From NCBI RefSeq assembly GCF_001619985.1, contig NW_017264199.1, positions 1,302,001 to 1,366,000 on the forward strand: 64,000 nt of DNA, in the 5' to 3' direction. This DNA is from Xylona heveae TC161. Its lineage: Eukaryota; Ascomycota; Xylonomycetes; Xylonales; Xylonaceae. Below, piece by piece: positions 1,486 through 39,280 of this stretch; the stretch's first letter is position 1; every line of letters starts with the position of its first letter. A program made the position numbers and the translations under genes. The notes below the pieces were generated by a model. That model saw only the letters and a list, made by a program, of their open reading frames with translations, was not told the origin of the DNA and searched no databases.

Positions 1486-4400
1486 ATGGCGTCTAGGCCG
1501 GAATTGAAGGTATGATAGCTTTCGTCGAATGCGATGGGAGTCGGACTAGCACGCTGGCATTTGAAGCAGGGAATGGACAGCGAAATCTGATTATATGGAT
1601 TGCAATTGTACTGACATTATTCTGCAGCTCGACGACGAGGTTGGCTTCATTCGCTTCTTCCGAAATTTGCCTAGTAAGGACGAAGAGACGATTCGCATAT
1701 TTGATCGAGGCGATTGGTATTCAGCACATGGAGATGATGCTGCATTCATCGCAAGGACGGTATGCTCTTTAGAGGAAATAATGGTCTACGGCGATGGCTT
1801 CTGACGATACTAGGTATACAAAACTACATCTGTGCTCCGCCAGCTTGGCCGCAGCGACAATGGCCTTGCCTCAGTTACCATGACTATTACAGTCTATCGG
1901 AACTTTCTGCGCGAGGCTTTGTTCCGCCTAGGGAAGCGTATCGAGGTTTATGAGGCGACAAGTCGAATGAACTGGAAGGTGTCAAAGCAGGTTCGAGACA
2001 GGAGTACTTTTTTGAGTTAACAACAAAAGGGCTAATTGGCGGGGTAGGCTTCTCCAGGAAACCTCCAGGACATCGAAGATGAACTCGGCGGCCAGATTGA
2101 CTCTGCTCCCATCATCCTGGCGGTCAAAGTCACTGCCAAGGCATCGGAGGCTAGGACAGTCGGTGTATGTTTTGCAGATGCCAGCGTCCGTGAACTTGGT
2201 GTCAGCGAATTCCTCGACAATGATTTATACTCTAACTTTGAGTCAATGCTGATCCAGCTCGGCGTCAAGGAATGCTTGATTCAGACGGACGTGCAGAAGA
2301 AGGACGTCGAGTTGGGAAAGCTAAGAAGCATAGCCGACAATTGTGGGTGCGCAGTTACGGAGCGGGTTGCAGCCGATTTTGGTACGAGAGATATTGAGCA
2401 AGACTTGACCCGGCTGCTGCGAGATGAGCGGTCGGCTGGAACACTGCCTCAGACAGATCTCAAACTTGCCATGGGATCGGCCGCTGCTTTGATCAAATAT
2501 CTCGGCGTTATGCATGATCCTTCGAACTTTGGTCAGTATCAGTTGTACCAGCATGACCTATCGCAGTTTATGAAGCTAGATGCGTCAGCGCTCAAGGCAC
2601 TGAACCTGATGCCGGGGCCTAGAGACGGCTCCAAAAACATGAGTTTATTTGGCCTTCTCAACCACTGCAAGACGCCTGTCGGCAGTAGATTGCTTGCTCA
2701 GTGGCTCAAGCAGCCTTTGATGAGCCTGGAGGAAATCGAGAAAAGACAGCTGCTTGTCGAAGCCTTTGTCGTGGACACTGAACTGAGACAGACCATGCAG
2801 GAGGAGCACCTACGTTCTATCCCTGACCTTTACAGGCTATCCAAGCGGTTCCAAAGAAAGGTTGCAAATCTGGAGGATGTTGTTAGGGGCTATCAGGTCG
2901 CTATCAGACTTCCTGGTTTCTTGGGTACTCTGGAGGCAGTCATGGACGAGAAGTACAGAGATCCTTTGGATGCGGAATATACATCAAAAATAAAGGTAAA
3001 CTGAATCATTGGGTATCGTCCTAGACCTCCAGCTGACGCCTTTTTAGGAGTACTCGGACAGCCTGGCTAGGCTGCAAGAGATGGTGGAGACGACAGTAGA
3101 CCTTGACGCTCTCGACAATCACGAGTTTATCATCAAGCCAGAGTTTGATGATAGCCTTCGGACAATCCGCAAGAAGCTCGATAAGCTGCGCTACGACATG
3201 GAAAAGGAACACGAAAGCGTTGGGGACGATTTAAACCAGGACACAGAGAAAAAGCTGTTTTTGGAAAACCACAGGGTGCACGGCTGGTGCTTCCGTTTGA
3301 CTCGAAACGTATGTGCCCTATCTTAGCATGACCTGGCAAATATGCACTAATATCTTTACAGGAGGCAGGCTGCATTCGCAACAAGAAACAGTACCAAGAA
3401 TGTTCGACACAAAAGAATGGAGTATACTTTACCACTGCTGCCATGCAGACAATGCGGCGAGAGTTTGACCAGCTCTCGCAAAATTACAACCGCACACAAA
3501 GCGGATTGGTCAACGAAGTTGTCAATGTTGCGGGTACGTCTTTATTCCACCGATTGAACAATTTTCAGAATACTTAACCGGATATCTAGCATCTTACTGT
3601 CCCGTATTCGAGCACCTCGCTGCAGTTCTTGCCCACCTTGACGTCATTGTTAGTTTTGCTCACGTCTCTGTCCACGCACCGACACAATACGTACGGCCCC
3701 AGATGCATGCTCGTGGGCAAGGGGACACGGTTCTCAAAGAGGCACGCCACCCATGCATGGAGATGCAAGATGACATCCAATTCATTACCAATGACGTGGA
3801 GCTCCGACGAGGCAGCTCAGAATTCCTCATCATCACCGGTCCTAATATGGGCGGAAAATCGACATATATCCGGCAAGTCGGGGTGATTGCTCTGATGGCT
3901 CAGGTCGGCTGCTGGGTGCCCTGTTCGGAAGCGGAATTGACGCTGTTCGACTGCATTCTTGCACGAGTTGGCGCCAGCGACTCCCAAATCAAAGGCGTAT
4001 CAACATTCATGGCTGAAATGCTCGAAACAGCGAATATTCTCAAGACAGCCACGTCCGAGTCGCTCATTATTATTGACGAACTGGGCCGTGGAACAAGCAC
4101 GTATGACGGATTTGGTCTCGCATGGGCCATATCAGAGCACATTGTGCGCGAGATCAAATGCTTCTCTCTCTTCGCCACACATTTTCACGAACTTACCGCC
4201 CTGGTGGAACAATACCCCGCAGTCAAAAATTTGCACGTCACTGCGCATATCGGTGAAGGTCCCTCATCGTCCTCCCTGGCCGCCAACGGTACGACAGGAA
4301 CCAATGGCGCATCCGACGATGAGGAGCGTGCTAAGCTAAATAAACGCCGTGAGGTTACACTGCTCTACAAGGTTCAACCCGGCGTGTGCGACCAGAGTTT

Positions 4401-4722
4401 CGGAATCCACGTTGCAGAGCTAGTCAGGTTCCCTCCAAAAGTCGTCAACATGGCAAAACGAAAAGCAGACGAGCTTGAAGACTTTACGGTCAAGCATGAT
4501 CAGGAAACTGCTCATGCAATGGCCCAGCATTCCAAAGAAGATGTCGAACAGGGAAGTGCCATGCTCAAGGATGTGCTCATGCAGTGGAAACAGGAGGTTG
4601 AAGCTGCCGGCGGTGAATCGGAATTATCCAAGGAGGAAAAGATTCAGAAGATGAAGGATCTAGTCATGCGCAATGAGGAGTTGTTGAAGAACCCCTTTTT
4701 CCAGGCCGTCAAGGCTTTGTAA
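1486..4722 (+). CDS. MSH2: DNA mismatch repair protein Msh2
   Basis: MutS-family ATPase that pairs with Msh6 or Msh3 in the nucleus to recognise base mismatches and insertion loops. Seven exons give a phase-consistent 948-residue protein, the usual length: 1486-1509, 1628-1759, 1814-1990, 2048-2995, 3048-3308, 3362-3533 and 3590-4722. The first exon codes only eight residues (MASRPELK), the conserved start of filamentous-fungal Msh2. The N-terminal mismatch-binding domain carries the fungal [10 protein letters not shown] motif; connector and clamp domains follow. In the ATPase domain the Walker A loop GPNMGGKST lies near residue 655 and the Walker B/signature [12 protein letters not shown] near 734. 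The C-terminal helices end at PFFQAVKAL. All catalytic motifs are intact and nothing suggests loss of function. The exon joins are inferred from family similarity. Confidence 0.95.
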
Positions 4723-7700
4723 TGGCGTGCGAGGCTGTCCAGAGGACTTTGTCCTCCTTGGGAGCTTTGGAACTGTGTCGGGGATACGACATATTAGAAT
4801 TGCTTTCCGAGACATAAAACTGGAGTTTTGGAGCTACTTATGAGGATAGATGTGTGGGAAACTTTTTATTTCAACATACTTGTGCGGTAGCTGGTATCAG
4901 GGTAGCACTTGCGGCCGGGAGGCCGCAGAGGATTTGCGCACAGCTTGTCGGGTTTTCCTTCTTGTTTTGGCATGGCATCTCTTCATCTTGTTTGCTAATC
5001 TTTTGTTTGCACCTTATTTATTTGTCCATTCCCTATTTGCTTTTTTTGCTCTCTAAGGAACCAGAATCTACGAGAAATACTCAGACTCCGATTTACACCA
5101 TCACCACTTGCATCTCTCAATACCCATCCCCAAAAATCTCTACAATTGTACTTCACCTGCCGCGACATATCTCATCAGTTTTACTATACTGTCTCTAGTT
5201 TGAGCTTGTCTCCTATTATTAGACTGTCCGAACGTCCACGTAAGTCTTGAATTCTTGGGATCTTGAGCCTGACTATCTGCATTACAATATAACTCAATTG
5301 TGATGTACACACAGATACCAGGCATACCTTGTCAGACTCTAGATTCGCGGAGGAGAGTTGTACAAACACGGAAACAAAATATAATTACGTGGTCATGCAG
5401 CTACCCGGAAAAGAAGCAACCATTCAATTCATTGCCCCGACAAACAGGGCGCCGCGATTCGTCAATTCGTAATATATAACACCAGACAGCCAAAATCCAG
5501 TCAATCAATATTCATACGACACCTTTTCAGGATCAATGTCTATTCAACTCAACTTGGAATAACAAATAAACAATGCCGAGCCGCAGATATTGATGGTGAT
5601 TGGAGTTAGTGAAGTCCTATACAATCCATGAGCCAGCTAATCACTGCCAGCAACGCATAGCAAACAAATCTTCCTCCTGAGTCATTCACTGACCAACATT
5701 AAAAGCTCAAAGAGAATCGGTATGCTGCAGCCTGCAGCCGGCAGGCAGCAGTGTAGCATTACAGATATAAACCCTCCAGCACCTATGGCCTCTTCGCATT
5801 GCTTCCAGCTTCCACTCTAGGTTCCACATATGTGAACAGTGAACATTATGGCGCGGTGTCAAAACCATGATCATCGGCTTCAATTTCTATTCCGGATACT
5901 TTGATAATTTTTTTTTAAACAAAGGTCTATCTCAATCTCCCTTTTCGAAGGAGTCATTTTCCAACATTCCTCCTCTGCTCCCTTTGAGGTACTTTTGGCC
6001 ACGCAGTGCCCTCCAATAGACTTTAAGTTCCATGCAAGACCGCCTACGACTTGTCACAACTAAAATATGGTGAATATTCGCAAGATCTCGGAATTTGGTG
6101 CAGCGATAGCGAAGAAATCATAACTGCCGGGAGCTTTTAACTTGCACGCAGCATGGCTTGACAGATGTATTAGTCGTCGGACCCTGCAGTTGAGCGAACG
6201 TCTCTTAGAACAAAACTCATCGAACAAGAAACGAACCCATTACCGTTTTATCACCAAATAGAAAAGGTACATAGAAACGATGATGCAGACCACGACAGAT
6301 CAATCCTTCGCATCGAGCACCGGTCACCCAAAGTCTCCCGCCGGAAATATATATAACAACGACAACTGGGATCTCAGAACGAACAGAGTGACAAAAGGAC
6401 TCAATTCCCTCCTTCTCTGTCTGAAACACATATTTGGTGAAGAAGGACCTGGAGAACCGTATAATTTGGGCACTGCTGCAAAGCAAGTCGATACAAAGTT
6501 TTACCGTTTTGACTTTTTTGATTTGACTCCGTCTGTGAGAAAAGCAGGCGCAGACGCAGACGCGAAGGGAAACCAAGACGGAAAACGACAGTCAACCGCA
6601 ACGCGGCCCGCGTCCAAAAATCTGGCGATCGTCAAATAAAAAGAAACAAACATAGAAAATAAATGCTGCAAAGACTTACATCTCGCCATGTCTTTGGGAA
6701 GGCCGAACCTGTATCGGTCATGGATCCAGAACCACCGCCGGTGGGAGTAGTGGAGGAACCGGCAATATGAGGGTTTCGAACAAAGAACATTTGCCGACTT
6801 CATGTTGCACTGTTGCCAGCGCTCAATAGCGCGAAAAGACCCTGGACACGAAGATACGTGAGCCAATAAATAGGTTCAATGGATCGAGGACTGCTATAAG
6901 CAGTATTTTGAAAGTCAGCAACGAAGATATCTTCATCATTCTGTCCCCCTTGAGGATGTTTCAAGGATCGGCATGGGGAGACGCTACAGTACTCTCAAAT
7001 CCAGCGCCTTGACAGGCTGATCATTCCCCAATACATGGCAGGCTCGGAGGCAGAGATTGCCGAAGGGGCTACAGCGGAGGAATACTTCTGGGCAGATAAA
7101 CAATATCACGGACAACCTTGGCTTCCAGTCATCCCAGCTGGGTGTGATGAGCGATGAGCTCCGGCCATGTTATACCGGCCTACCCGCGGCAAATATGACA
7201 AGCATCCGTTAAATCAAGAAGCAACAGCGGGTGCGATCATTAGCCGGGTGGTTCAATTATAGACAAGACTGGTGCCGCTGGGCAGCTGTCACTGAGTCGT
7301 ATGGTTCGATTTGTCGAAGACTCGAACCACCCTACGCGATGGCAGCTGTTCCATTAGAAGAGTTTTGAAGTCTGCGATGTTTCGTCACTCGGAGCACCAA
7401 TCAACTTTGATCGTTCAGAATTCGAAATTTTCAATTCATACAGTTCGTCATTTTCTTTATTTACGTCGACGGACGGAATATTATCATCACCGCTAATGAC
7501 CAACCGAACAACCACGAGGAAGTAGAACAAGACGCTTTTTATATATTTAACTTATCGTCATAATCCTGCATAACTCAATGACTTTTGTGGCCTGGGATTC
7601 ACAAATATCAAGACCGGACTTTGTCAAATGCGCCCGTTAAGACCATGCGACCTTGCAACAACAACTGACAGGATGGCCAGTCGTGTGGTAGGATGAAACC

Positions 7701-9552
7701 ATCTTCCTCAAACAAGTGTCTGGCCTCCGAAAAAAAGAAGAGGAAAATGGACTTTGTGGCATTCAAGCGTGGTCTGCTAATCAAGCACGATACTCCATCA
7801 ATGCCAGAACGGAGAGCATCTCACATCCGAATACGTATCGGAACAAAGTGCCAGTCCGTGAATGTTTCCTTTCTCATGGAAGCAAAAAGGCGCGGACGAT
7901 TACAGTGCGATAAATTCTATTTTGTCCTGACTGAGATCTGGAAAACAAAGGCATCGATGATACCTGGATTTGACAAAGAATGCCCAAGCCCATGGACAAA
8001 CCAAGCACCTCGACATCCAGTATCACTTCACTAGAGACAGGCTAGTTGAAGACAAAGCGGTCATTTTGCGATACAGCCCTACAGCTGAGAATGCTGCTTA
8101 TGGTCTGACCACACCCCTCTTCCCCAGTTGGTTTACGCAGTTGTATCTCACAAGAAAATTGGGTGCGGCCAATGTCTACAATCCGTCTTTGCTGGATTCA
8201 TAGAATTCAAGCTCAGATGTGGCCGGTGCAAGACATTGGGGTTGACTTGCTTCCATTGCATCTTGCCTCATGCGTCATGATGCTGAGATATCCTTCTGCA
8301 ACAATTCGAATTTCCCAGATGAAACAACACGACAGATGGATCAATCAAGAACAGTATACAAACATACAACATTTACCTTCTTTTAAAACATAAGACAAAC
8401 TATTTACCGGATCTAAGTCCGACACGCTTGCATATGGAACAGGTATGCAGGCTGATATTTGAATGGGGACCTTATGTACGGGCGAACTCATATCATACGA
8501 AACTGAGAATCTAAGTTCTAGAAAACAATTGAAAATTTGTCAAGCCACGGAGCAGATTGCGGCTTGAACCAGAAGCTGTGCAGAAACAAAAAGTCGGCCG
8601 TCCGCATTTCCAAACCTGCACACTTTCAGATTTAACGCCAGACCAGAGTGCGATTCTGTATATGGCAACGACGCTCATCGAAGAACCTTACCTCGAGGGA
8701 AAATGCGGATGTGAACTATGACCGCGGTTTGCTCTTCGTCGTCGGCGGACCGAATACCCAACTTTAGATCTATCTTTCAGTATTAATTTCTTGAAAAACC
8801 CACACATATTACAATGCAAACCTTTTGTTGCCAGACGAAGCTGTGTCAGACTCATGTCCAGAACTGGCGGGACTCTGGCAAGAAAGGCAAGAAAACCATC
8901 TTGCAAAGCAACACCTTTTTCAAGTACGCCCACAGGCTGCAGCTTCTGTTAACCTTTCCTGCACTTGAGAGGGTGCAGAATGGACTGAGTACAGCCATGC
9001 TGAATTGGATCTGACCGTCAACGGTGTTGGTCCCTGGTGCAACCCTAACAAAGAAGAATGCAGCCCATGGTTCCAGGCTCTGGTGGCTCGTTTTGCTACG
9101 CAAATACCTACGGCCAAGGCATTGAGATGTTTGTCAAAACGTCGTCTGATGACAGGAAAACATTTACGAGAAACCGGATATAACCGTTTTTTATCTTTGA
9201 CCCAAGCTATCCATATTACAATACTCAAAATATGGAATGGCCACAAAATATTTCCTGCTGTATCATTCTGCTGTCTGCATCATGGAAAGATATCGGCTTT
9301 TACAACTACGATTATCTACAAATTACACAACATCCAAAACAATGTACGCGTATCAGGCATCCCTAGGAAGGAAGCCACATCAACAAATCACCTCGGGGGC
9401 CATCAGATGTACAGAGATTTGAGAGAACTCTTAGGTCCACGGACCGGAATGGGAGGTCAATCGTTCGCTGCAAACGGTCAAGACTGATAGCCACTGCCAG
9501 GTCCTTTGCAGTTGTAGACACACTACACTCAACAACAAATCCTTTTGTAAAG

Positions 9553-9581
9553 CCCACATGAGGGTATGTCCCTCATGTGGG
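9553..9581. repeat. Perfect 12-bp inverted repeat with 5-nt loop
   Basis: CCCACATGAGGG is followed by TATGT and the exact reverse complement CCCTCATGTGGG. The symmetry stops sharply at both ends, so this is not the remnant of longer terminal repeats. No gene lies within 3 kb. It could fold as a stable RNA hairpin or act as a dimeric protein site; neither can be decided here. Confidence 0.6.
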
Positions 9582-12531
9582 TGGACCTATTCCAATGCTG
9601 ATAAACATAATTGCAACGCCAATAAAAAGTATGTGATACTGTATTTAGCAATGTCACAACAAGCCAGGATCGTCGCCATGTTTGCGATGATCTTTGGCTT
9701 TTCGCCATTGATCTCGGCCATCGATGACTGAGACCAAACGCGAAAATATTCGGAGCAAACCCAAAGGTTTAGTCCATCTTCGACACTCTAGGGATCTAAT
9801 GGAAACCAATGAGCAGAAAACCAAAATCGAAACCTTCTTCAAGCAGATCGGTGTCAAGAAAAGATCGGCTTGCGGTGTATTTGGTTCTCGCAATGCGGTT
9901 TTTGTTTCTCCTTTTCTTTTTCCGCAAAGGAGAAGGCGAGGCGAAAACACCCTGGAAACGCCGTTGGACTGTAGAGCCCAAGACTCTGGGTCTCTCAGAG
10001 CAGCCCAGTGGCCTTTATCAGACATCAATAAATGAACCAAAAGTATTCGGACCGAACCACAAATCGTTATACGGGATTTTTCCTTGCCTTTCACCATTTG
10101 CAATATGCTCGTGTTGCAACCTGGCGGTTACGAAATAGCGAGCATTACGCATTGCACATCCCTCACCCAACCAGCACTCGTCCTTATGGTGTTTTTTACG
10201 GGAAAAATGCCATTGATTCAGGGCGGAAAAGAGAACTGGTAAAACTTGCAAATGAAACAGCACGGGATCAATGCAAAGATCCAAAAGCAGTATTGGTCGG
10301 TTATATTCCTATCACAGCACTGCATCAGTGCCAGCATTAATTATTCTCACTGCAGAAATACAGACAAACTGTTGCTAGAGTATCTTGTCTGGGTCAGTCA
10401 AGAGATGTTAGAGTCAGGGAGTCCAGACAGACCATTAGCCTGTTTTGGTTTTGAGGATGCTACCAGTCCGGACTCCGGAGTGTCCCGGCCAAACCAAGTG
10501 GCTCTTATGGAGTCATGGACTATAGAGCCTCATGACGTTTATAGACTTGACGGAACGGCAAATGTGTTTCTCACGACCTACGAATCCCAGTGGCCGTTGT
10601 TCAAGATTAGACATCCATTGACAAACAATGGCGTCGTGAAGAAGTCTCAAATGGAAAGTACAAGGGGTCGCACGTTCACGAACTCTCAACGCTTTGCGGC
10701 TTCATCCGAGGAGACCTTTTCGCAAAACCATTCTGCAGTTCCGTCAGCTGAACCGTTGAAGCGGGTGGCAGGCTTCAACCTGCGTGTGGTATGCGGTATA
10801 TCGGCATGACTTCATCGTGGCATGACATCGAAGACCTCTTGCTCAGAGACAACAGAGACTTCAGCTTCAATCTTTCAGACATTTTCCTTGGACACTACCC
10901 TTTCAGATCAGCGGTTGACTGTTTCCCTATAACCGTTGTGTAAACTGTACGTTTGACTGGATATGCAGTTGGACCATTCACCCAATCGCTGGCAAACTTG
11001 GATATTGAACACGCCCCCAAGGACCCGGTGGCGGGGAAGGGTAGGGGGTGAACCCCCAACAGATGCAGCAGCTACATGAAGAGAGCAAATGGTAGATCTT
11101 CTCGTGTTCCCACAAGTTTTTCTTCAGTCTTCAAAATTCAGGCTTCAGTGGATCACCATCCAGCAACAAGCGTATGCTCGTGATTTCCAGACAGGACCAT
11201 ACACAAATCTGGCTTGACAGAGGTGGCATGCAATATGAGGCAGCTCCCCCTCTGCCGCGCCAGTTGTTGGCTCGGTGCCGCCTCTTTCTCCCTATGATGC
11301 TGCTCCTTGTATTTTTGGATGGTCTAGACACATTTGGGTCTTTGACAGGTTACGAGCCCGGAAGGAGAAACGGGGGTATGACCGTATGAAATGGACGGAA
11401 AATTCTACGAAAGAGAGCAACTCTTCGACAACATGTTTTTAATAAGTCATGACATTTTTAAAGATTTGTTTATACCAGGGCAAGCGGTGTGGCACGATAC
11501 TATCGAAACCTTCAACGATGATGATGAAGAACCGTTTGAGAATACAGGTATACTGTATACAGCATAAAAATCAGAGGAGCGAGGAAGGAGCAATAGTTCC
11601 GTGTTCGCTCGTGGTCTGGAGATCATGGACCCGAACTTCTGGTTCCGTACCACCTGGAGTCCTGGAATCCTGGAGTTCTGAAGTACGGAGAACAGAGATG
11701 TTGAGTTGATAGCCGCTCAAAAAACTCCAGATACCCCCCACAGAAACAAACCAACGGTACGGATTATTGATACGCGCTGATAATTATATTGACCGTGTCC
11801 TCTTGGATGCTGGCTTTGTCAGTTATACAATCTGATGGAATCAGCGTATAGTGTATAGTGTCCTTGTGGACGTCTTTGGAAGCAATGAATGCACGGGAGT
11901 CCGGGAGTTCGGGAGCTTGAAACTTGGATCCAAGAAAAAGCAATCAAGGATTTTAATAAATAAAGGCATTATGAGGGTGTCAAGGGGAAGATGAAGAGAT
12001 TGAATCGCCTTTGGAAGGCGTATCAGGCTGTCAAAGTAAACAAAGACATTATCATGGATTCATAGATCCATAGATTCCATATTCATAAATTCATAGACAT
12101 AGACGGGCATAGACTACTCATATAGCAATACCAAGTTACCAACAAAGAAGATTATCTGATTCCATTCAAGGTCGGAACAAAGAGCAGCGTGCCAGAGTTA
12201 GTAGCGTTTAAGTACATAGCGAAAAAACAATTACAAAGTCATAGAGAAACGCAATTTTTTGACCGCACAACAATGGACAAAGACAAAAAGACGAAAAGAC
12301 AAGGACAGAAGAACAACAACTAAAAAGAACACAACAAGAGAACAAAGTCAGAACATAGCGTAAACATAGACTACATTATAAACATATATTGCAAAAGGAA
12401 AGAAACTTGCAAAGAACAATTGCTGAACAATGCGATTCATATATTGAACAATGAAACCTCAACACCAGAACAAAGACCACAAAATGATGAACAAAAAAGG
12501 ACCCATGAGCGAACAACTCGATCAAATGGTC

Positions 12532-12538
12532 TATATAA
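12532..12538 (+). promoter_or_regulatory. TATA element of the 12799 gene
   Basis: TATATAA lies about 260 bases before the ATG. It sits at the boundary between an A-rich stretch upstream and a C/T-rich leader (about 12560-12660) downstream, the usual order of fungal core promoter and 5' untranslated region. A CTAAC..TAG acceptor-like end just before the ATG (near 12779-12785) hints at a leader intron. Confidence 0.45.
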
Positions 12539-12798
12539 ACACCGTGCAGGACATCCAAAACTACTTCTTCTTTTCTCAGCATCACAACATCTTCAACACA
12601 GTTCCTCACCTTCTTTTTCCAGCATTCTCATCACGCCTTTCTTGCCCCTTTTTTTAAAAACCAGCATTTGGATCTCCTTGAGATTAGCAATCTTTCCGCG
12701 TTTCATACAGCGATCCCCATCCCTTTCATCCCTTCCCATCCTTTAAAAGTACACGTTTTTTACTGACCTAAATTGCTCTAACATAGGAAAAAACCAAA

Positions 12799-14712
12799 AT
12801 GTCTGATCGTCGAGTCACGCGGTCTATGACTGCGGGCTCCAACAACAACGAGCCCAACGGGAACTCCACCAGCAATGCCAGCAATGCCAGCGGGAACAAT
12901 GGTAGTTCTGTGTCCAATGCCAACGGACGCATAGCTACCAACGGCCGTCCGAGAGGTCGTCCTAATGCGGCGGCTGCAGCGGCAACGGCAGCGGCAACAA
13001 CGGCGGCGGCGGCCACTGCTCCTACGCAGTTGAGCGCCAGACACGCCGCGCCAAACGTCATCACGCGCAGCACTTCTGCAGCAACAAATCCGAATGCGCC
13101 TACTGCACCAGTGAGATACACGCCAGTGACGGCGGTGCGGAATATTCCTGGATATCCTACCAGAAATGTCCCCCTTCCGGCTGGCCTCTCTGATAATGAT
13201 ATCTTTAACAATTGGAAGAATCACCTTTATGGTGACGTGCTCTTGGATCTGCATACCAGGCATAGCGCGGATCAGATTGCGAATTTGATTGGACATGGTA
13301 CCTCACTTCATGCCATTTACAGTCGCATCTCCCGAGCTCGACAGTCAGCAAGGTCGTATGGCACGGTTACTGTAGCGCGGCGACAGGCGACCAACCTGTA
13401 CAATGCCGATATCTATGGATTTCCGGATGGCCACACCATTCTGCCTCCTGGGCTGAGCATCGACCAAATCCTGGACGGGTATTTCAACCATGTTCGGGGG
13501 CCTTTGCTTTTGCAGATTTTGCAGCACCGCTCTGAAGCGGAGATTGCACACAGAGTGGGACGGGGAATGACCCCTACCACTATCCAAATGAGAGCACGGG
13601 ACGCGCAAGCAGAACCTCCTGTTCCAGAAGCACTTCTGTATCAATTTGCGCCGCCACAGATTAATCCTTCTTCAACGGGTCCGTCCGCGTATGGGGCTAT
13701 TTTAGCCAATGCTGCGGCGCAACCCACCTCCAGCACTCCCATTGGTCCGCTCAGCTCCGCCTCGAATGCGTCACGTAACGTGGGAGGAGCGACTTGGAAT
13801 TCGTATCCCGCCCGAAACGTGCCGCTCCCTGCGGGGCTCTCGGCGGAAGACATTGTCGTTCAGTATCCGAACCATCTCCATGGCGAAGTACTGATGGCGG
13901 TGTTTCAAGCTATAGGATTGGAGGAAATTGTCCGTCTCAGTCCCCTTGGGGTGAAGTATCATACTCTACGTGTGAGACTCACTCGTGCGGGGTACGTGAG
14001 TTCACACCCAAATTCAACACGAAATGCCCGAGGGCAATTTGCACGTGGAGAAAGCGAGGTGGCGGAAGATCAGCGCACTAACGAGACAATGCAGGAAGAA
14101 GCGCAGGAAGAAGCGCCGGCAGACATTTCGGGAGAGATGCCAGAGGGCATGGACGTGGATGACTTCCACCTCATGACTGCTCTCACGCAGTTCAACAACC
14201 CACAGACGCAGACGTATCCCCCTCTTCCGGAATTGCCTCCGGTCGAGGCTGCCGAGGTTGATGTTTTAGCCGAGCTGGAATCTCGCTGGTTCGGAGAACC
14301 CATGGACTTGGACGACAGCGAGCAGCTTCAGGAGACCCTATTTGAGGATGAAAGCCAAGAGCCGGAATATTCAGAGTGGTTAGACATGGATCAGCTCGAA
14401 GAGTAAGCTTCCAATGCCACCAATCCCTGGTGCAACAAAGGCTTTCTCCATCCCAGAGTTGGCTAATCAGTATCAGGCATGGCTTGGGGTCAATGGTCAA
14501 GGAGGCCAAGGGAAAAGGTAAGTCGCTCAGCGGTAAGTGAAGGTTTCTTTTGTATTCCTTTTTTGCTCTCCTCTTGTATTTCTTTCTTTGCAGAATTTCC
14601 ATGCATACTGACTGAACAGGATGCCTTTGTTTCCTCGCGACGCGACGAGATGGACGATTTGCGAAGACTGTTGGTGGGGTGGTTATGCGAGCCAGAGACA
14701 GCGTTGGTTTAA
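12799..14712 (+). CDS. Unrecognised regulator-like protein with three HTH-like repeats and a basic AT-hook-like motif
   Basis: I do not recognise this family. The first exon alone reads 535 codons to a TAA at 14404-14406, but that stop sits inside a donor, GA|GTAAGC. Joining 12799-14402, 14471-14517 and 14594-14712 is phase-consistent and gives 589 residues with a coding-like tail (EFPCILTEQD...MDDLRRLLVGWL). Domains: a low-complexity Asn/Ser head, a basic GRPRGRP AT-hook-like motif near 49-55, and an Ala/Thr tract. Three diverged 62-residue repeats lie at about 119-180, 208-269 and 336-397, sharing LPxGLS, a hydrophobic I, NH(L/V)xG, an EIA-like helix and a basic end. A strongly acidic region follows from about 415 to 530. 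Repeat plus DNA-contact motif plus acidic tail suggests a nuclear DNA-binding regulator; that is inference. The second exon could instead begin at 14477, six bases later and in the same frame. Confidence 0.7.
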
Positions 14713-14972
14713 GGATCATGTGTGACGAGATAAGTGAAGCTAGACCCTTTCATATTTTCTTCGTTGTTATTTTTGCAGACCTGGCTAACATCGCAGCTCC
14801 ATTTATTGATCAAGTATTAGGCGGTGTCCAGGTAGAATTAACTGTAGTCTTAGCAATAAAGTTGATCACTGAAAATATTAAACTCTTCAAGACCACATTG
14901 GAAAAATATTTGTCACTTTGAAATCGTGAACGAGAAAAATTGTTCTCATTTAATATACCTGAAATAATATGA

Positions 14973-17328
14973 TCAAAATATTGCGCTTTCCTTGTAGCCG
15001 CGCCGCGAATTTATGTTGCCTTGCGACACTCTGACACGCGTTGCTTTGGCTGGCCTTTCTGTAAGTCTCTTCCACACTTCGGCAATGCTGGCCCGTGTAG
15101 CAGGAAGCATGCTGTACTGTAAACTGTAGAGATTTCGGCGATGTATTGGTGGGACGAAACGCCCAGTGACAAGACAGAAACTGACATGTGGTGCCAAGTA
15201 ATGTTTGCGTAAGCGATGACCGAGCTGGAAATATTGTTGGAACATTGCGCGTAGAGAAAGTGGGACAGACTGGAATCGGGAGGTAAATAAAAATTCCATT
15301 TCAAAAGTAATTTTAAGAAACACTTACCTTCAGCCTAATGTACGAAGTTCGTGGCATATTAGACTCCTGGCGCAAAGAAGTTGACGCAGTTTGGGTATCA
15401 TAAAGCTCAAAACGAATGCCTCCTGCAGATTCCGGTTAGCAAATTTGGAGTGTTCTTCATGCATAGTTCATTATTGAGGATAGGTTACCAGGTAGCCGTT
15501 TAGAATCTTTGACTCGAAGCATAAGTGCAAAAAGGGGGAAATGGTTCAAGCAGGCCAAAAGGGTATCTAATGCAGCCTTGAGAGAGATGATTATCATTCG
15601 AGCCGACGCAAAAGTTAGATAAAAGACGGCGACAGTTGGAAGCAGAAAGAACAAGAGTGTGAACAGAATTGTCCCCAGTAGAAGCTGATCAAGATCATAA
15701 TCGCAAGAATCTATTCGGTTACGGAGCACATTACGCTTCTTTCCCCGAAAGAGATGAAACAATGAGATAATGATCGTCAGCTGCCAGTTATAGATACGTG
15801 CTGAAGCGATATAAAAGGAGTAGATGTGCAACGTGAGCAGAGAAAGGAGATCCGAAAAGAGAGCTATAGGGACGCTGGCGCCAGCGAAGCTGGAGAATCC
15901 GATAAAATAAATCACCTGAGGCAGGAGTGGTCGCAGGTTCGCCACACAGCCTTTCTTCCGGTCAGCAATTTGTTTGAATTTAGACTCCGCCAAGACATGC
16001 ACCTACCTGCCCAGTAATCTATAACCCAGAGGAACAAATCGCCAAGGAATGCAGCTAATTCAGTATTGAGCTTTAAGCCCGCTGGCCAAAACATCAACCA
16101 TGATATCATTCTTTGAAGCCCCTCAATGGTCCAGGATGAGAGAATACTATCAATCTGATATGCAACCCATTCCGCATTCTCAATAATGTACGATCCGAGA
16201 GCGATGCCGATAATTACATCGTTTGCGACAAGCCAAAGGCTGTTGTAGAATCGTATATAATCGGGATGGCTATCCGTAATACTTTCCCAATCGTCTTTTC
16301 GACTCCGTAATGTGAGATACTGTATAGGCCAGTAGCAAAACTGCTGCAACCGAATGTCGACTTGCTGAGCGGTAGCAGATATGTCCTTCAGAGCAGCAAA
16401 TTCCGGCCTTAAACGCCATTCCAAGACCCTGAGGATCAATTCTGCCATGGCGCGATGGAAAACGAGAAAGACTATGAACACTTTGATGAGGATTGGTAGC
16501 AACCAAATGGTGATCGAGTTTGTTAGCCCAAGAATAGCATTATCCCACATGGTCGTTGCCGACTCAACCACCCTCTCACTGACACTCAGATGTCGCCGCG
16601 GTCTGACACCTACCAGCCCAATGTTTTTTCGAAGCAATGCACCCATCTCGAACGAACAGTTGATCTGGGTGAGTATTGCCGGGAGGGCCAGCTCCTTCTC
16701 AGATGGGGGATGTCGAACGACTGTATGCAAACCGATCTTTTCAACGAGCCGGGATTTCCGCTGTCTTTCCTTTTCAGCTTCTAGATCGACGCTGTCCAAA
16801 GCAGTAGAGCCGTTCACCGCATGACCGGGTTTGTCGTCAAGCGCCAAAGACATGGGATTGAGAGACATGAATTGCATGCGAGTCGGATGAGGCTTCTCGA
16901 ACAATATGATTTGCACGCTAATGGCGGAGTCCTGGGGACAATGAATCCGAGGGGGCTGCGATGAAGCATTTGTGAAGGCAAATATATGCGACGAGTTGAA
17001 TAGAGTCGTCGGTGGTGGGTTGGAAGGGTTCAGCGTTCCCAACACCTGCATCGATACCTTACCACAAAGCTGGTATATTCGTCCAACTGGGTGTGGGCTT
17101 CCGCGAAAAAGCGTACCAATTCGAAGCGCATTTTCGACGCTCCGTGCCTAAGCCACAAAGTTTATTTAAAAATTCACCCTTTAACCAATATCGAAATAGC
17201 GCTTCCACACTCACTTCAACATCTTCCAGGACCGTAACGACTACAATGTCCAGATCGGAATTCCTCCAGCCAACAATGACACCTGTAGAGGCAGTTCGAA
17301 TGATATCCAATGGCCAGAAAACTCTCAT
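14973..17328 (-). CDS. GPI1: GPI-GlcNAc transferase subunit Gpi1 (PIG-Q)
   Basis: Subunit of the ER complex that transfers N-acetylglucosamine from UDP-GlcNAc to phosphatidylinositol, the first step of GPI-anchor synthesis. Five exons on the minus strand, in transcript order: 17328-17215, 17147-16007, 15950-15489, 15422-15328 and 15269-14973, all phase-consistent, giving 702 residues. The protein opens MRVFWPLDI, then VIVGWRNS, and its C-terminal half is the Gpi1 domain with several membrane helices. Recognisable stretches are RLQQFCYWPIQYLTLRSRK, LFSDLLSLLTLHIYSFY, SVPLSLRAMFQQYFQLG and FVPPIHRRNLYSLQYSMLP. An in-frame ATG seven codons upstream (17349) is an alternative start. The gene starts only 61 bases after the stop of the upstream minus-strand locus and converges with the 12799 gene. 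Confidence 0.93.
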
Positions 17329-19570: not shown

Positions 19571-22235
19571 ATGGATCCCGCCCAAAACTTTAGATCCCTT
19601 CAAGAGCAGGTCTCTTCCGCTCTTGTCGCAACGACGAGGACAACAGGGCAAATTGCTGCAGAGGATCTCCCGTTTCAACGGTCGTTGGATGCGAATATTG
19701 CTTCCTCATTGGATGAACAAAAGTCTCGTTTCCTTAAACTTGCCGAAAAGCTTGTTAATTTCGCCGCTTCGGGTTCAGAAATTGATGCTCCACAACTTGA
19801 AGACGCAGATGCCTTGGAGAACAACTGGCGAGGTGTGGTGGACGTGATAGACAGCCTCCTGGAGAGGGCCGACACCTGTTTGGACGAATATACGGGAGTA
19901 ATCAAGAGACTCAGTCCGAGCGAACAGGAGCGGGTGAGTACAGACAACAAAATCGAGTTTGGAGCCTATGAATTGACTCCCAAGAGAAGCCACCGACGCC
20001 AAAGCCAAAGAAGGCACGAACAGGAAACGTATTTAGGACGCAGAACATCCCAAAGCCGCAGTTGCTGTTTGAAAACGTTCCGACCAATGCCGAGAGTACT
20101 GCGTTTAAGCCTCTCTTAAATGCGAAACCGCATGCCATAGTTCCTTTGGAGCAGAGCCTGACGACTTTTGTCAATGAATATGGCCTTGAACAGTACGCTT
20201 ATTTCGCTCTCGCGCCATAATGACTCCGCTTACAATTGCTAGATACAAGCATCCATACGAAGCCGAAATCAAAGAATGCCAATACCCTCCTAGTGTGTAC
20301 GATCAAGTAGAGCCGATTCCGTATCGTTCATTCGAAGACACTGCGGCGACCTTTGTCGATACACCTGAGGCTGTGGCTGCTATGCTTGCTGAGCTAAAGA
20401 ACGCAAAGGAAATCGCTATAGATTTGGAACATCATGATTCGCGATCATACGTAGGCATTGTCTCTCTTATGCAAATTAGCACGCGGGACAAAGACTGGGT
20501 GGTTGATACGTTGAAACCTTGGCGGAGAGACTTGCAAGTACTGAACGAGGTTTTTGCGGATCCGAGAATTGTCAAGGTAGGCGCAATTGACATCGAGAGT
20601 TGGGAACAATGCTGACGATTCAGGTTTTCCATGGTTCTTTCATGGACATGATCTGGCTCCAGCGAGACCTGGGGTTGTACGTCGTTGGACTCTTTGACAC
20701 ATATCATGCCGCCCGGGCTCTTGGATTTCCCAAACAGAGCCTTGCTTACTTGCTGTCAAAATACGTGGGTTTCGATGCCGACAAACAATATCAAATGGCG
20801 GATTGGCGCATCCGGTATGTCTTTCAGGTGGGCGGAAATATTTTTGAAATTTGTTGTCTAACCGCTATCTAGGCCGCTCCCGGAAGAAATGTTCAATTAC
20901 GCTCGGTCTGACACGCATTTCCTCCTTTACATCTACGACTGTTTAAGGAATGAGCTCATTGAGAAAACTCGTCGAAAAGAATTGGAGCAGCATTGCATTC
21001 AAGATGTGCTTCAACGGTCCAAGGACTACGCCCTACAGCGGTATGAACGGCCCATTTACGATGAAATCAACGGACGAGGGCCCGGTGGATGGTACGACAT
21101 GCTGGTTCGATCTCCGGCAATGTTCTCGAAGGAGCAATTTGCAGTCTTCAAGGCCGTACATCAATGGAGAGACCAAGTTGCTCGTCAAAATGATGACAGC
21201 ACCAACTATATTATGCCGAAACACGTTCTGCTGAATATCGCCAAGGCAATGCCGATGGAGGTCCCTGCGCTTCTCAATGTTGCGCAGCCCATTTCGCAAC
21301 CTGTCCGCCTTCGGATCAGTGAGTTGCTTGGCGTCATCAAGCAAGCTAAAGCAGCCGGCGCCAACGGACCTGACATGATGCAAGTCCTGCAGCCACAGCA
21401 ACCAGCATCACAGGGCGGAGAAGCGCCAGAAGATGGCAAGTCCGTTAACACGTTTGGGGGAGAAACTGCATTATCGGAAAGGAAGCTTCCCGCGACGCCA
21501 TTCCCAATCAAGAGCGACAGCTCGACTTTCTGGGGCGAAACCTTTGGCAGTAGCGTGTGGCAGGTTAACGTGACACCCGGAAATGTCATCGAGGACTTAA
21601 GGCTCGCATTGCCTTTGCCTGAACTCACGGCTGAGATATTCGCTAATCCCTCAGATTTTGCTGCTTCGCGTCCTAACAAGGAAGGAGTAGACCCTGGCGC
21701 TCGAGCTGAGCACGAGTACATCAAAGATCGGAAACCACAAGCCTCTGAAGACAGTAATATATTTGTTGTCAAGCAGCTTGGAGGTGGTCGGAAGAGAAAA
21801 TTCGAAGATGAGGAGACACATGTCCCAACTTCTGGACCGACCTCCGACACAAGCGAGGCGGATGTTGGCACGCAAGAAAAGGAAGAAGAGAATGCAGAAG
21901 AGGAGGAGGAGGAGATAAGGCTCCCTACGGAAGAAGACGAAATCAAGCGCAGAGCCCAAGAAAAAGCGGCACGCAAGGCGGAGAAGAAAGCCAAGAAGAA
22001 AGAGGAAAAGGAACTTGCCAAGCAGCAGGCTCAAGCAGCGCAAGATGCGGAAATGGAGGCCGAGCCATTCGATTACAGCAAGGCGGAATCAGTTCTCCAT
22101 GCTAATCCTCAAGGCAAGGGTGCAATTGATAAAAGCAAGCGGTTCAATCCTTACGCCAAGGCGGCTAATGCACCCAAGGGGATGCGCAAGGTTCAGAAAG
22201 AGAAGTCTGGCAAAAGCTTTACCTTTCGGAAATGA
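19571..22235 (+). CDS. RRP6: Nuclear exosome 3'-5' exoribonuclease Rrp6
   Basis: DEDD-Y exonuclease of the nuclear exosome, trimming rRNA, snoRNA and aberrant transcripts. Exons 19571-19933, 19987-20192, 20243-20576, 20624-20814 and 20873-22235 give 818 residues. Order of domains: N-terminal PMC2NT region (about 1-120), linker with [13 protein letters not shown], exonuclease domain, HRDC domain (around [16 protein letters not shown]) and a long acidic then Lys-rich tail. Catalytic residues are all visible: D250 and E252 in DLEHHD, D309 in [10 protein letters not shown], and Y374/D378 in YARSD. The C-terminal tail, with runs of Glu followed by KKAKKKEEK, is likely the exosome/RNA-binding 'lasso' and nuclear localisation region. 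Works in the same surveillance pathway as the NAB3 gene at 48949. Confidence 0.95.
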
Positions 22236-27044: not shown

Positions 27045-29817
27045 ATGTCAGTGGCCACGATGCTTCACACGCCGTCGAGGGCGTCCACGTCCTCTTCGTC
27101 CTCGTTCATCCCAATCTCCCGCCAGAACACCATGGCTTCATCACACGATGGGCGTTCTGCGAGGCAATCAAAACGTCTCTCCGTCACTGCGCTTTATCTG
27201 TCCATGTCTAACAAGGAGAGAGATTTTGAAATCGAAGACGAGCTTGCACGAGGTGAGGAATGATCGTTTCAACACCTGAAGGATATCTACTGACAAGCTT
27301 GCAGCTCAGAAGAATCTGCGTGAGCTCAAATCGAAGATCTCCTCGCAGTCAAAGAAGAATTTTGTGCTCGAGAAAGACGTTCGTTACCTCGATTCACGCA
27401 TTGCACTACTCATCCAAAATCGCATGGCACTGGAAGAGGTCAGTTCGGCTTTGGCTTTTCATGTATACAGAATTCAGGCTAACTATCTATTTAGCAAAAT
27501 GAAGTGGCAAATCACCTCGACGAAGTCGAAATTCAGGAAGGCGACTTCCCGAACGATGATAAAACTCAAAAATACGGAAATCTTTTCTTCCTACTCCAAT
27601 CTGAGCCTAGACACATTGCTCATCTGTGTCGGCTAGTGACCATGGCAGAGATTGATTCTCTTCTACAAACGGTCATGTTCACCATCTACGGAAATCAGTA
27701 TGAGAGCCGTGAAGAACACCTTCTTTTGACCATGTTCCAAGTAAGTATACCCTCTCAATCTCGTCTCTCTCGCGGGTTTCCAATCCGGACAGCTTGAAAC
27801 AGAGCTCTGCATTTTGATTGGCATAGTCCCTATCGTAGCATAATTTCTAATGCGGCGATTGTAGTCTGTGCTCACCTACCAATTTGACAACACTCCCGAC
27901 TACTCTTCCCTACTCCGCGCGAACACGCCCGTATCCCGCATGATGACAACATACACGCGACGAGGCCCTGGTCAAAGTTACCTCAAGGTTGTACTGGCGA
28001 ATAGGATAAACACATTGATCGAAATGAAGGACATGGATTTAGAGATTAATCCTCTCAAAGTCTACGAGCGCATGATTGAGAAGATTGAGTCGAGCGGGGG
28101 AACGTTACCCCCCGACATGCCAAAGAGTGTTACCGCCGAGCAAGCGGCTGCGAATGAGCAGGTCCAGAAGCTCATCGAACCTCGCCTGTCTACGCTAATG
28201 GAGATTGCCAATGGATTTTTGACCACCATTATCGATGGCCTAGAAGAGACTCCGTACGGCATTCGATGGATTTGCAAACAGATTCGGAGTCTGTCCAAGA
28301 GGAAATATCCTGAAGCCCAGGATCAGGTCATCTGTACTCTCATTGGAGGTTTCTTTTTCCTCAGGTTCATTAATCCAGCTATTGTCACGCCCCGCTCATA
28401 CATGCTGATCGATGGCAACCCTGCTGAGCATCCGAGACGAGCACTGACATTGGTGAGTTTCCGACCTTTGCTTGCAATAGCATTTTAAAAAGTGCTTTAC
28501 ACTAACGGATTTTCAAAGATTGCCAAAATGCTTCAGAATATCGCAAATAAGCCGTCGTATGCAAAGGAACCATACATGGCAAAATTACAGCCCTTTATCC
28601 ACCAGAACAAGGAGCGCGTCAACAAGTTCCTGCTGGACTTGTGCGAGGTGCAAGACTTTTATGAGAGTCTAGAGATGGACAACTATGTTGCCTTGTCAAA
28701 GAAGGATCTCGAGTTGTCTATTACGCTGAACGAAGTATATTCTACGCACGCGCTCTTGGAGAAGCACAGCACAGAATTGGTAGGTTCTTCTCGATTATTA
28801 CAAGGAAAGATGCAGGGCTAATTTTTTTTTTTTTTTTTTTTTTCAAGGCCAAGGACGAGAGCTCACACCTGTACACTTTACTGAAAGAGCTTGGATCGGC
28901 GCCTCCACAGCTCCCTCGCAAAGAAAATCGTGCAATCAATTTGCCGCTCTTCAGTCGGTGGGAGACTGCGGTGGACGACTTGACGGCAGCTTTGGATATT
29001 ACTCAGGAAGAAGTGTTCTTTATGGAAGCCAAGGCCACATTTGTCAAGATTATGCGATTGTTGCCTCATAATTCGGTCGTAATGCGAAGGCCCCTTCGAC
29101 TGGATAGGATTGCTGAAGCAGCCGCGACAACGAGAAACGACTCGATGATGGTTCGAAAGGGCATCCGGTGCATGGAATTGCTCAGTCAATTACAAGAACT
29201 CGGAGTCGTCGACAAGTCCGATGGGTTCGGACTTTTGCGTGAGGAAATTGAGCAGGAATTGATGCACCTTGGATCTCTCAAAGAGAAGGCCCTCCGAGAG
29301 ACGGTAAAGCTGGACGAGGTGCTTCGAACGATTCGCGATCACAATGGGTATCTCGTGGGCCAACTCGAAACGTACAAGTCGTATCTCCACAACGTGCGCA
29401 GCCAATCAGAGGGGAAGCAACGCAAGCAGCAAAAGCATCAAGTCCTTGGACCTTACAAATTCACGCACCAGCAGCTTGAAAAGGAGGGAGTCATCCAAAA
29501 GAGCAACGTGCCCGAAAATCGTCGCGCCAACATCTTTTTCAACTTTACAAGCCCACTTCCTGGCACATTCGTCATCTCGCTTCACTACAAGGGTGAGTTC
29601 CTTTCTTACTCCGCATACCCTATTCTCAAATGCTGACGATTTTTTTTTGTAAATAGGACGTAATAAGGGCTTGCTTGAACTTGACTTGAAGCTTGATGAT
29701 TTGCTTGAGATGCAGAAAGCTGGTCAGGAAGATCTCGACCTGGAGTACGTTCAGATCAACGTAAACCGGGTTCTTGTCTTACTCAACAAGCGATTTTCTC
29801 GAAAGAAGGGGTGGTAA
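27045..29817 (+). CDS. Ras GTPase-activating protein with RasGAP C-terminal domain (Gap1/IQGAP-C type)
   Basis: Stimulates GTP hydrolysis by Ras and so turns Ras signalling off. Seven phase-consistent exons, 27045-27252, 27305-27438, 27495-27740, 27865-28452, 28519-28779, 28848-29592 and 29657-29817, give 780 residues. After a Ser-rich head and a coiled stretch come the RasGAP domain and the RasGAP_C domain, ending RFSRKKGW. In the RasGAP domain the arginine-finger region is near [15 protein letters not shown] and the [12 protein letters not shown] motif is intact. There is no calponin-homology or IQ region, so it matches fission-yeast Gap1-type proteins rather than full IQGAPs. The intron before exon 6 carries a 22-base T run. 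Conserved acceptors and all frames agree. Confidence 0.9.
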
Positions 29818-38020: not shown

Positions 38021-39280
38021 ATGAGTGAAACCTTCCTCGACCACGCCGGCGTCAAGCGCGCGCTGGACGACATCTCTGCGTACGCCACCGAATTCGAGAC
38101 ACTTTCCTTCTGGAGCACGCTCTTGCCGCTCTACTTTTCTAGTAGCGCGTACAAGCTCGAAGTTTTCTTCGAGTCCGAGTTTGAGACCGAGACTCAGTTC
38201 CATTCTCGTCAGTCTCGGTCCCAGCATCTCGGCATCAGAGTAATTGCCATTGGCAATAACGGCCGCCACGTCAGCCCTGCTGCCCATGCTGCTCACGCTG
38301 CGTCTTTTGTCCCCACTGCTTACCATCAACCGGGCATGAGAATTATTCATGGGACGGAAGCTGGCACTATCGGCGTCGTGAGCAATGGCGGTATCATTCA
38401 GTCCATCACGTTTCTGCCGCTGCCGATTCCGCCGCTTCGGTCGACTGCGCCGACTGCACCGACTGCCACTCGTTCTTTTCCTTTGACTGGAGACGCTACC
38501 AGTGGCAGCATCGTCACCGACTCTCGCGTGGTCTTGACTATCATTTGCAAGGCGGGCAACTGGGCCAGAGACCTCGAGGTCTTTGGCGGCGCAGCGGATC
38601 CAGCTGATGACGGTGACGGTGATCTTGATAGCTTCAGTAATCTCAATATCGAAGAAACCCGTGCCGACCTTTTTGACAATGGCGGCGGAGTGCGCATTAA
38701 TGCGGATAAAGACGGCGATGATGCCAACGGGAACTCCAACGGGAACCTCAACGGCATCTCTAACTCCGACTCCAATACCAACAATCAACAAAACGAAAAC
38801 AACGGCACCAACGGCATCAATGGTACCAACGGTTTCAGTGATGACGATGATAGTAACGACAACGACGACGGCATTCTCAACCAAGTGACTCACCTCGTCG
38901 CCACGAACCGCAACGTCGATGGCAACATGTGGGCCATCGTGGCCACTGGCGGGTCTGCCACCGTCTTGTTCATCAGCGGCGAGGACGTCGGGCTCGTTGC
39001 CGATCGTCTGCAGTTCCGGCCCGGTCGAGTTGCGCCGCCGCCACCATTTGCCTTTGGTCACCCCCGTCTTGCTGCTACTGGAATTGCTGCTCCTGGGCTG
39101 TTTGGGAACTTCTGGGCGCGAGTCGCGGATACTACCAACGCCGACTACGCGGATACAGAATATGGAATTGACGTGGAGCGCATGGAAGAACTCTTTACGG
39201 AGATTATTGAACACCCGCGCGGCCCGCCGCTGGGAACGACCTATGTCTCTGCGACGCAGCGACAGGGCGGGATGGAGTAG
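38021..39280 (+). CDS. Unrecognised 419-residue protein with Asn/Gly/Asp-rich insert
   Basis: A single open frame from ATG 38021 to TAG 39280, with no family I recognise. The N-terminal part (about 1-210) and the C-terminal part (about 300-419) look ordered: SAYKLEVFFESEFETET, LGIRVIAIGNNG, ITFLPLPIPPLRS, VVLTIICKAGNWARDLEVF, then MWAIVATGGSATVLFISG and IDVERMEELFTEIIEHP. They are separated by a hydrophilic spacer of about 75 residues dominated by N, G, D and S. Alternating beta-like hydrophobic stretches suggest one globular fold with a disordered insert. No signal peptide or membrane helix. The opposite strand is open for 407 codons across the same interval, probably a codon-use shadow. The frame, size and composition support a real gene; function is unknown. 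Confidence 0.65.
   Translation: MSETFLDHAGVKRALDDISAYATEFETLSFWSTLLPLYFSSSAYKLEVFFESEFETETQFHSRQSRSQHLGIRVIAIGNNGRHVSPAAHAAHAASFVPTAYHQPGMRIIHGTEAGTIGVVSNGGIIQSITFLPLPIPPLRSTAPTAPTATRSFPLTGDATSGSIVTDSRVVLTIICKAGNWARDLEVFGGAADPADDGDGDLDSFSNLNIEETRADLFDNGGGVRINADKDGDDANGNSNGNLNGISNSDSNTNNQQNENNGTNGINGTNGFSDDDDSNDNDDGILNQVTHLVATNRNVDGNMWAIVATGGSATVLFISGEDVGLVADRLQFRPGRVAPPPPFAFGHPRLAATGIAAPGLFGNFWARVADTTNADYADTEYGIDVERMEELFTEIIEHPRGPPLGTTYVSATQRQGGME

What the first reader, a model, noticed from the sequence alone, without database searches (positions are those of the whole stretch)
12799..14712. Unrecognised regulator with three diverged helix-turn-helix-like repeats
The translation contains the same roughly 62-residue unit three times (residues about 119-180, 208-269, 336-397). 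Shared positions include LPxGLS, a following Ile, NH(L/V)xG, a helix with EIA/QIA/EIV, and a basic RxxRA-type end. The first and third share the near-identical start RNVPLPAGLS. A basic GRPRGRP motif precedes them and a strongly acidic region follows. Tandem DNA-contact units plus AT-hook plus acidic tail would be an undescribed type of fungal DNA-binding protein, or a diverged Myb/homeodomain-like one.
Basis: partly seen in the sequence, partly recalled or inferred. Interest (0 to 1): 0.75.

Follow-up and report, generated by a model that had tools for sequence, protein, structure and literature searches.

The report
Fungal-type protein with triplicated helical domain
A gene, probably from a fungus, encodes a protein carrying the same small helical domain three times, between a short basic motif and a very acidic tail; the layout suggests a DNA-binding regulator of a kind not matched in the databases at hand, but DNA binding is not shown.

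Summary
A 535-residue open frame (12799-14406, +) carries one ~65-residue unit three times (residues 118-182, 208-272, 334-398). Each pair outscores all of 5000 shuffles. R1 and R3 share 27 residues but only 4 of those 27 codons: an old duplication kept by selection on the protein. AlphaFold2 with the three repeats as alignment gives a confident four-helix unit (pLDDT 89.8, pTM 0.73). Its last two helices are ordered like a helix-turn-helix, and the last is the only net-basic one in every repeat. GRPRGRP precedes the repeats; the tail has net charge -33. No significant match in Pfam, NCBIfam, PHROGs or PDB sequences, nor in viral or prokaryote contigs. Foldseek matches are weak (PDB best E 3.7), mostly transcription proteins. 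Myb membership fails on tryptophans and spacing. Best reading: a DNA-binding regulator with three diverged HTH-like domains and an acidic effector tail (0.55). No fungal proteome and no own genome was available, so 'undescribed' and 'conserved in orthologues' are untested.

The parts
12799..14406 (+). Open frame, 535 aa plus stop, for the triple-repeat protein (start codon assumed to be the ATG at 12799)
   Evidence: codon-usage score of this frame above zero in 9 of 11 blocks of 150 bases and above the other two plus-strand frames in 11 of 11; a minus-strand frame scores higher in 3 of 11
12943..12963 (+). GRPRGRP, AT-hook-like core (residues 49-55)
   Evidence: PRGRP occurs in 18 of 20000 shuffles of the protein; Pfam reports no AT_hook match
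13150..13344 (+). Repeat 1 (residues 118-182); helices modelled at repeat residues 15-21, 28-37, 40-47, 53-64
13420..13614 (+). Repeat 2 (residues 208-272); weakest basic last helix (+1); no structure model of its own
13798..13992 (+). Repeat 3 (residues 334-398); P where R1 and R2 have the first G of the turn (the second G is kept); no structure model of its own
14059..14403 (+). Acidic tail (residues 421-535), 35 D/E against 2 K/R, net -33, with scattered aromatic and hydrophobic residues
14403..14712 (+). Possible spliced C-terminal extension: introns 14403-14476 and 14518-14593 would carry the frame to a stop at 14712. Unproven; other acceptor choices also stay open, some ending at 14725 or 14921

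Best explanation
A nuclear DNA-binding regulator. Each of the three units is a small four-helix domain whose helices 3 and 4 form a helix-turn-helix, with the basic helix 4 (ending R-x-x-R-A in R1 and R3) in the DNA major groove. Three units on flexible linkers, plus an AT-hook-like GRPRGRP in the low-complexity N-terminus, would bind an extended or repeated site by adding up weak contacts. The acidic tail would recruit co-activators or act on histones. Shown: the three repeats, their selection at the protein level, the charge layout. Predicted: the fold of R1. Inferred: that the fold is an HTH used on DNA, that R2 and R3 fold alike, nuclear location, activation by the tail.
For: Repeat significance. 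Protein-level selection: 27 identical residues between R1 and R3, 4 of 27 codons the same, 8.7 expected at saturation. R1 model with mean pLDDT 89.8 and helices 15-21, 28-37, 40-47, 53-64. Helix 4 net +3, +1, +3 while helices 1-3 are net 0 to -2 in every repeat. IAxxxG, the usual HTH spacing of helix 2 and turn (recalled), in R1 and R2. Foldseek: 7 of the 10 PDB matches are by title transcription regulators or transcription complexes, but all have E of 3.7 or more and probability of 0.15 or less. AT-hook-like core and tail of net -33.
Against: No statistically significant match to any HTH family by sequence or by fold (best E 3.7 and 2.4). Each whole repeat is nearly neutral (+1, -1, +1), unusual for a DNA-binding domain (recalled). 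R3 lacks the IAxxxG pattern, and the turn is longer than in canonical HTHs (recalled; helices end at 47 and resume at 53). Ten of the 15 invariant columns lie in LPxGLS, I, NH, G and L, before helix 3 (with the P), so what is best kept lies outside the supposed recognition helix. GRPRGRP has no flanking lysines. The single-sequence model of the three-repeat region failed (pLDDT 33.2), so R2, R3 and their arrangement have no model. Model coordinates could not be inspected.
Confidence: 0.55

Rival explanations
1. The units are protein-interaction domains, not DNA-binding ones: three small helical modules on flexible linkers hold partner proteins together, and the acidic tail is a chaperone-like or histone-binding tail. 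The conserved LPxGLS and NHLxG patches would be the binding surface.
For: Repeats nearly neutral (+1, -1, +1); most invariant columns lie before helix 3, in LP, GLS, I, NH, G, L, outside the HTH-like pair; no significant match to any DNA-binding family.
Against: Helix 4 is net basic in each repeat, an AT-hook-like core is present, and 7 of 10 weak PDB fold matches are by title transcription proteins.
Confidence: 0.3
2. A tandem Myb/SANT-type protein that has diverged beyond recognition (like fungal Rap1, which uses Myb-like homeodomains).
For: HTH-like helices 3-4, and R2's IAHRVGRGMTPTTIQMR looks Myb-like by eye; weak Foldseek matches include a plant MYB domain and ARR1; the c-Myb profile scores 18.0, reached by 0 of 200 column shuffles.
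Against: Tryptophans 1, 0, 0 per repeat; units 89 and 128 residues apart; hhalign probability only 9.2%, and the 20 aligned columns join the GLS-to-NHLxG part of the unit to the end of Myb helix 3, not HTH to HTH; no Pfam Myb model reported.
Confidence: 0.1
3. A domesticated transposase remnant of the CENP-B/pogo type (tandem HTH plus acidic region).
For: Tandem HTH-like units plus an acidic tail are reminiscent of CENP-B (recalled).
Against: No HTH_psq, HTH_Tnp_Tc5 or transposase-core match reported by Pfam; in 10500-17000 the only inverted repeat of 20 bases or more (77% complementary) has both arms upstream of the gene, so no flanking pair.
Confidence: 0.03

Closest known systems
Homeodomain-like / Myb-SANT helix-turn-helix domains (Pfam Myb_DNA-binding)
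   Same: Small all-helical unit, last two helices ordered like an HTH, several copies in one protein, basic last helix
   Different: No regular tryptophans, long irregular linkers, an extra conserved N-terminal LPxGLS segment and NHLxG; no significant sequence or fold match
Fungal Rap1 (Myb-like homeodomains; passages of PMC4416457 seen)
   Same: Fungal DNA-binding protein using Myb-like homeodomains with little sequence similarity to TRF (two of them: recalled)
   Different: Three units and an acidic tail here; Pfam reports no BRCT or Rap1 domain
Sigma-70 region 4 (PF08281)
   Same: The end of R1 gives the only HTH-type Pfam match, residues 167-182, E 0.24
   Different: Below cut-off (11.5 against 25.7 bits), 16 residues only; bacterial; taken as chance or convergence
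AT-hook proteins
   Same: GRPRGRP core in a low-complexity N-terminus
   Different: Single copy, no flanking lysines, no Pfam AT_hook match
CENP-B / pogo-like proteins (recalled)
   Same: Tandem HTH units and an acidic stretch
   Different: No transposase domain and no HTH_psq or HTH_Tnp_Tc5 match reported by Pfam

Membership tests
Myb / SANT | Three (or two) regularly spaced tryptophans or aromatic substitutes per ~52-residue repeat (recalled) | tested here: not met
   Tryptophans 1, 0, 0 in R1, R2, R3
Myb / SANT | Match to the Pfam family models | tested here: not met
   No Myb model among matches up to E 10, with HMMER's filters on
Myb / SANT | Repeats back to back with a period of about 52 (recalled) | tested here: not met
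   GLS motifs 89 and 128 residues apart
Homeodomain-like HTH fold (three-helix core with HTH) | Helix-turn-helix formed by the last two of three core helices | tested here: inconclusive
   Helices 28-37, 40-47, 53-64 in a confident model of R1, but Foldseek best E 3.7, and the coordinates could not be inspected
AT-hook (PF02178) | RGRP core with basic flanks | tested here: inconclusive
   PRGRP core present; Pfam model not reported
CENP-B / pogo transposase derivative | HTH_psq and HTH_Tnp_Tc5 domains, DDE core | tested here: not met
   No such Pfam match reported
Sequence-specific DNA-binding regulator (function) | Binds DNA, nuclear, alters transcription | not testable with these tools
   Needs the bench
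Family conserved in fungi | Orthologues with the same three units | not testable with these tools
   No fungal genomes or proteomes held; viral and prokaryote scans without relatives

The most novel reading that the evidence does not exclude
The unit YPxRNVPLPxGLSxxDIxxxYxNHLxGxxLL...EIAxxxG...TIxxRxxRA is an unnamed DNA-binding domain family of a fungal lineage: an HTH with its own conserved N-terminal LPxGLS segment, used three times in a regulator with an AT-hook and an acidic activation tail.
Probability: 0.35. Interest if true: 0.6.

Novelty: new variant of a known kind. Interest (0 to 1): 0.42.

Why it matters
If the unit binds DNA, it would be a fungal DNA-binding domain that family libraries miss, and transcription-factor counts based on Pfam would overlook genes that carry it. 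The motif LPxGLSxxxIx(5)NHxxG, taken from the invariant columns, gives a simple handle for finding others.

Tried and rejected
Family searches of the whole frame or of single repeats against Pfam, NCBIfam, PHROGs and PDB sequences gave only chance-level matches: Rhabdo_ncap E 0.093 over residues 395-469 (0.21 on the tail alone), Sigma70_r4_2 E 0.24, SidC_C E 0.09 and DUF7270 E 0.11 on R3, an NCBIfam model E 5.2, phrog_3923 E 0.29, two PDB chains at E 0.15 and 1.5 by phmmer, and a PII protein E 0.64 and a carbonic anhydrase E 1.2 by profile. Where curated cut-offs are printed, all lie below them; all are rejected. PADLOC was not searched. Rfam and ARAGORN found nothing in the window.

Relatives: four scans of viral contigs, two of genome contigs and a tblastn of residues 118-399 against phage records at E up to 1 found none. 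The scans require an exact short peptide pattern first and then tblastn E of 1e-3 or less. These collections are viral and prokaryotic, so this says little about fungi. The plasmid and E. coli collections were not searched. Within the window no other open stretch matched the repeat model (next best E 1.6).

Structure of the three-repeat region from a single sequence failed (pLDDT 33.2) and was not used. Foldseek against viral models gave 32 matches, best E 2.4.

Myb by profile comparison: probability 9.2%, wrong register. 0 of 200 column shuffles reached the score, a lax control because shuffling breaks local motifs; I do not take it as membership.

Splice models: one search tried acceptors at positions that I had counted wrongly by one or two bases; one search replaced it.

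Papers: six searches, which listed 0, 1, 0, 4, 8 and 0 papers. I saw the listings, and passages of PMC4416457 and PMC5470089; I read no paper whole. Nothing I saw mentions this unit; the terms were general, so this is no evidence that it is unpublished.

Full report
Where it lies. The window looks fungal: neighbouring frames match MutS domain V (3703-4719), Gpi1 (15912-17048, -), PMC2NT (19571-20116), HRDC (20889-22232), RasGAP (27940-28485) and the three PGAP2IP domains (41990-44008, -); 6 of the 10 frames scanned had a Pfam match. I read these as MSH2, GPI1, RRP6, an IQGAP-like protein and CWH43 (recalled names). 'Fungal' is inference from these and from intron-like signals; no tool named the organism. 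The window's own genome is not held.

The gene. One frame is open from ATG 12799 to TAA 14406, 535 residues. Codon usage learned from eight stretches taken as coding elsewhere in the window (2840 codons) puts this frame above the other two plus-strand frames in 11 of 11 blocks of 150 bases, and above zero in 9 of 11. In blocks 1, 2 and 7 a minus-strand frame scores higher (7.3, 13.9 and 12.3 bits against -3.4, 1.6 and 0.2); these blocks cover low-complexity stretches. Other acceptors also stay open, some ending at 14725 or 14921, so the 3' end is unsettled. The repeats are unaffected.

The repeats. Three units of about 65 residues, at 118-182, 208-272 and 334-398, share 15 invariant columns; identity to R1 is 31% (R2) and 42% (R3). 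Each of the three pairs outscored all 5000 shuffles. An HMM made from the three finds these three in the six-frame translation of the window (i-E 1.8e-36 to 6.2e-34); the next best of 1630 open stretches has E 1.6. That the HMM finds its own sources is by construction; the informative part is that nothing else in the window matches.

Old, and kept by selection on protein. In RNVPLPAGLS, shared by R1 and R3, 9 of 10 codons differ although all 10 residues agree. Over all 27 identical residues 4 codons agree, against 8.7 expected from this gene's codon usage if synonymous sites were fully randomised. R1-R2: 4 of 20 (6.0 expected); R2-R3: 9 of 19 (6.5 expected, so above it). DNA identity over aligned codons is 40 to 48%. 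So these are not recent DNA copies, and the shared residues have been kept. This also argues that the frame is a real gene.

The fold. AlphaFold2 with the three repeats as the alignment gave R1 a mean pLDDT of 89.8 and pTM 0.73, the five models lying between 86.4 and 89.8, with helices at 15-21, 28-37, 40-47 and 53-64. LPxGLS comes just before helix 1, NHLxG leads into helix 2, and EIAxxxG with TIxxRxxRA makes helices 3 and 4. I saw the order of helices, not the coordinates. Foldseek found no significant match: 10 PDB hits with E from 3.7 to 9.8. Seven of the 10 are by title transcription regulators or transcription complexes (AmtR, PerR, T. thermophilus RNA polymerase, a plant MYB, ToxR, ARR1, a PspF complex), one is a chromatin remodeller (RSC) and two are unrelated (APC/C, gamma-secretase). 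The three with rmsd of 3.0 or less (PerR, RNA polymerase, ARR1; 36 to 41 columns) are among the seven. HTH proteins are common in the PDB and I ran no control model, so this is a hint only. The viral library gave 32 hits, best E 2.4, mostly unnamed or uncharacterised phage proteins, the first a Mor transcription activator fragment. The whole three-repeat region without alignment gave no usable model (pLDDT 33.2).

Charge and layout. Helix 4 carries +3, +1 and +3 in R1, R2, R3; helices 1 to 3 carry 0 to -2. This is how an HTH with a DNA-facing last helix would look. Against it, each unit as a whole is near neutral (+1, -1, +1). The N-terminal 110 residues are low in complexity, net +8, with GRPRGRP at 49-55; PRGRP turns up in 18 of 20000 shuffles of the protein. 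The tail 421-535 is net -33, unmatched in 2000 shuffles. Basic head, three helical modules, acidic tail is a familiar plan for a transcription regulator (recalled), but also fits a chromatin scaffold.

Is it Myb? R2 reads IAHRVGRGMTPTTIQMR, which recalls Myb helices 2 and 3. Tests go against membership: tryptophans 1, 0, 0 and motif spacings of 89 and 128; no Pfam Myb match; profile comparison with typed c-Myb repeats 9.2%, pairing GLSxxDIxxxYxNHL with the end of Myb helix 3 rather than HTH with HTH. [quoted passage not shown]

Verdict. The DNA-binding reading is the best of those considered (0.55) but rests on a predicted fold of one repeat, charge placement and layout. The main rival is a protein-interaction module (0.3), which better explains why LPxGLS and NHLxG are the best-kept parts. 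Whether the family is already catalogued among fungal hypothetical proteins could not be tested here, which limits both novelty and interest.

Noticed in passing
4722-12798: About 8 kb between the MutS-domain frame and this gene hold no clear gene: 13 stop-to-stop frames of 100 aa or more overlap 4730-12700, the longest 188 aa; only that one (10252-10806) was scanned with Pfam, without a match. Possibly a long regulatory region or spliced genes.
   Followed up: partly
38021-39280: Uninterrupted 419-aa frame with a long N/D/G-rich stretch and no Pfam match at E 0.001.
   Followed up: no
41987-44008 (-): PGAP2IP-type frame (Cwh43-like, recalled) with all three PGAP2IP Pfam domains in one uninterrupted 673-aa frame.
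   Followed up: no
14679-14921: An 80-aa frame just 3' of the gene joins in frame in some splice models, so a longer C-terminus ending at 14921 is possible.
   Followed up: partly
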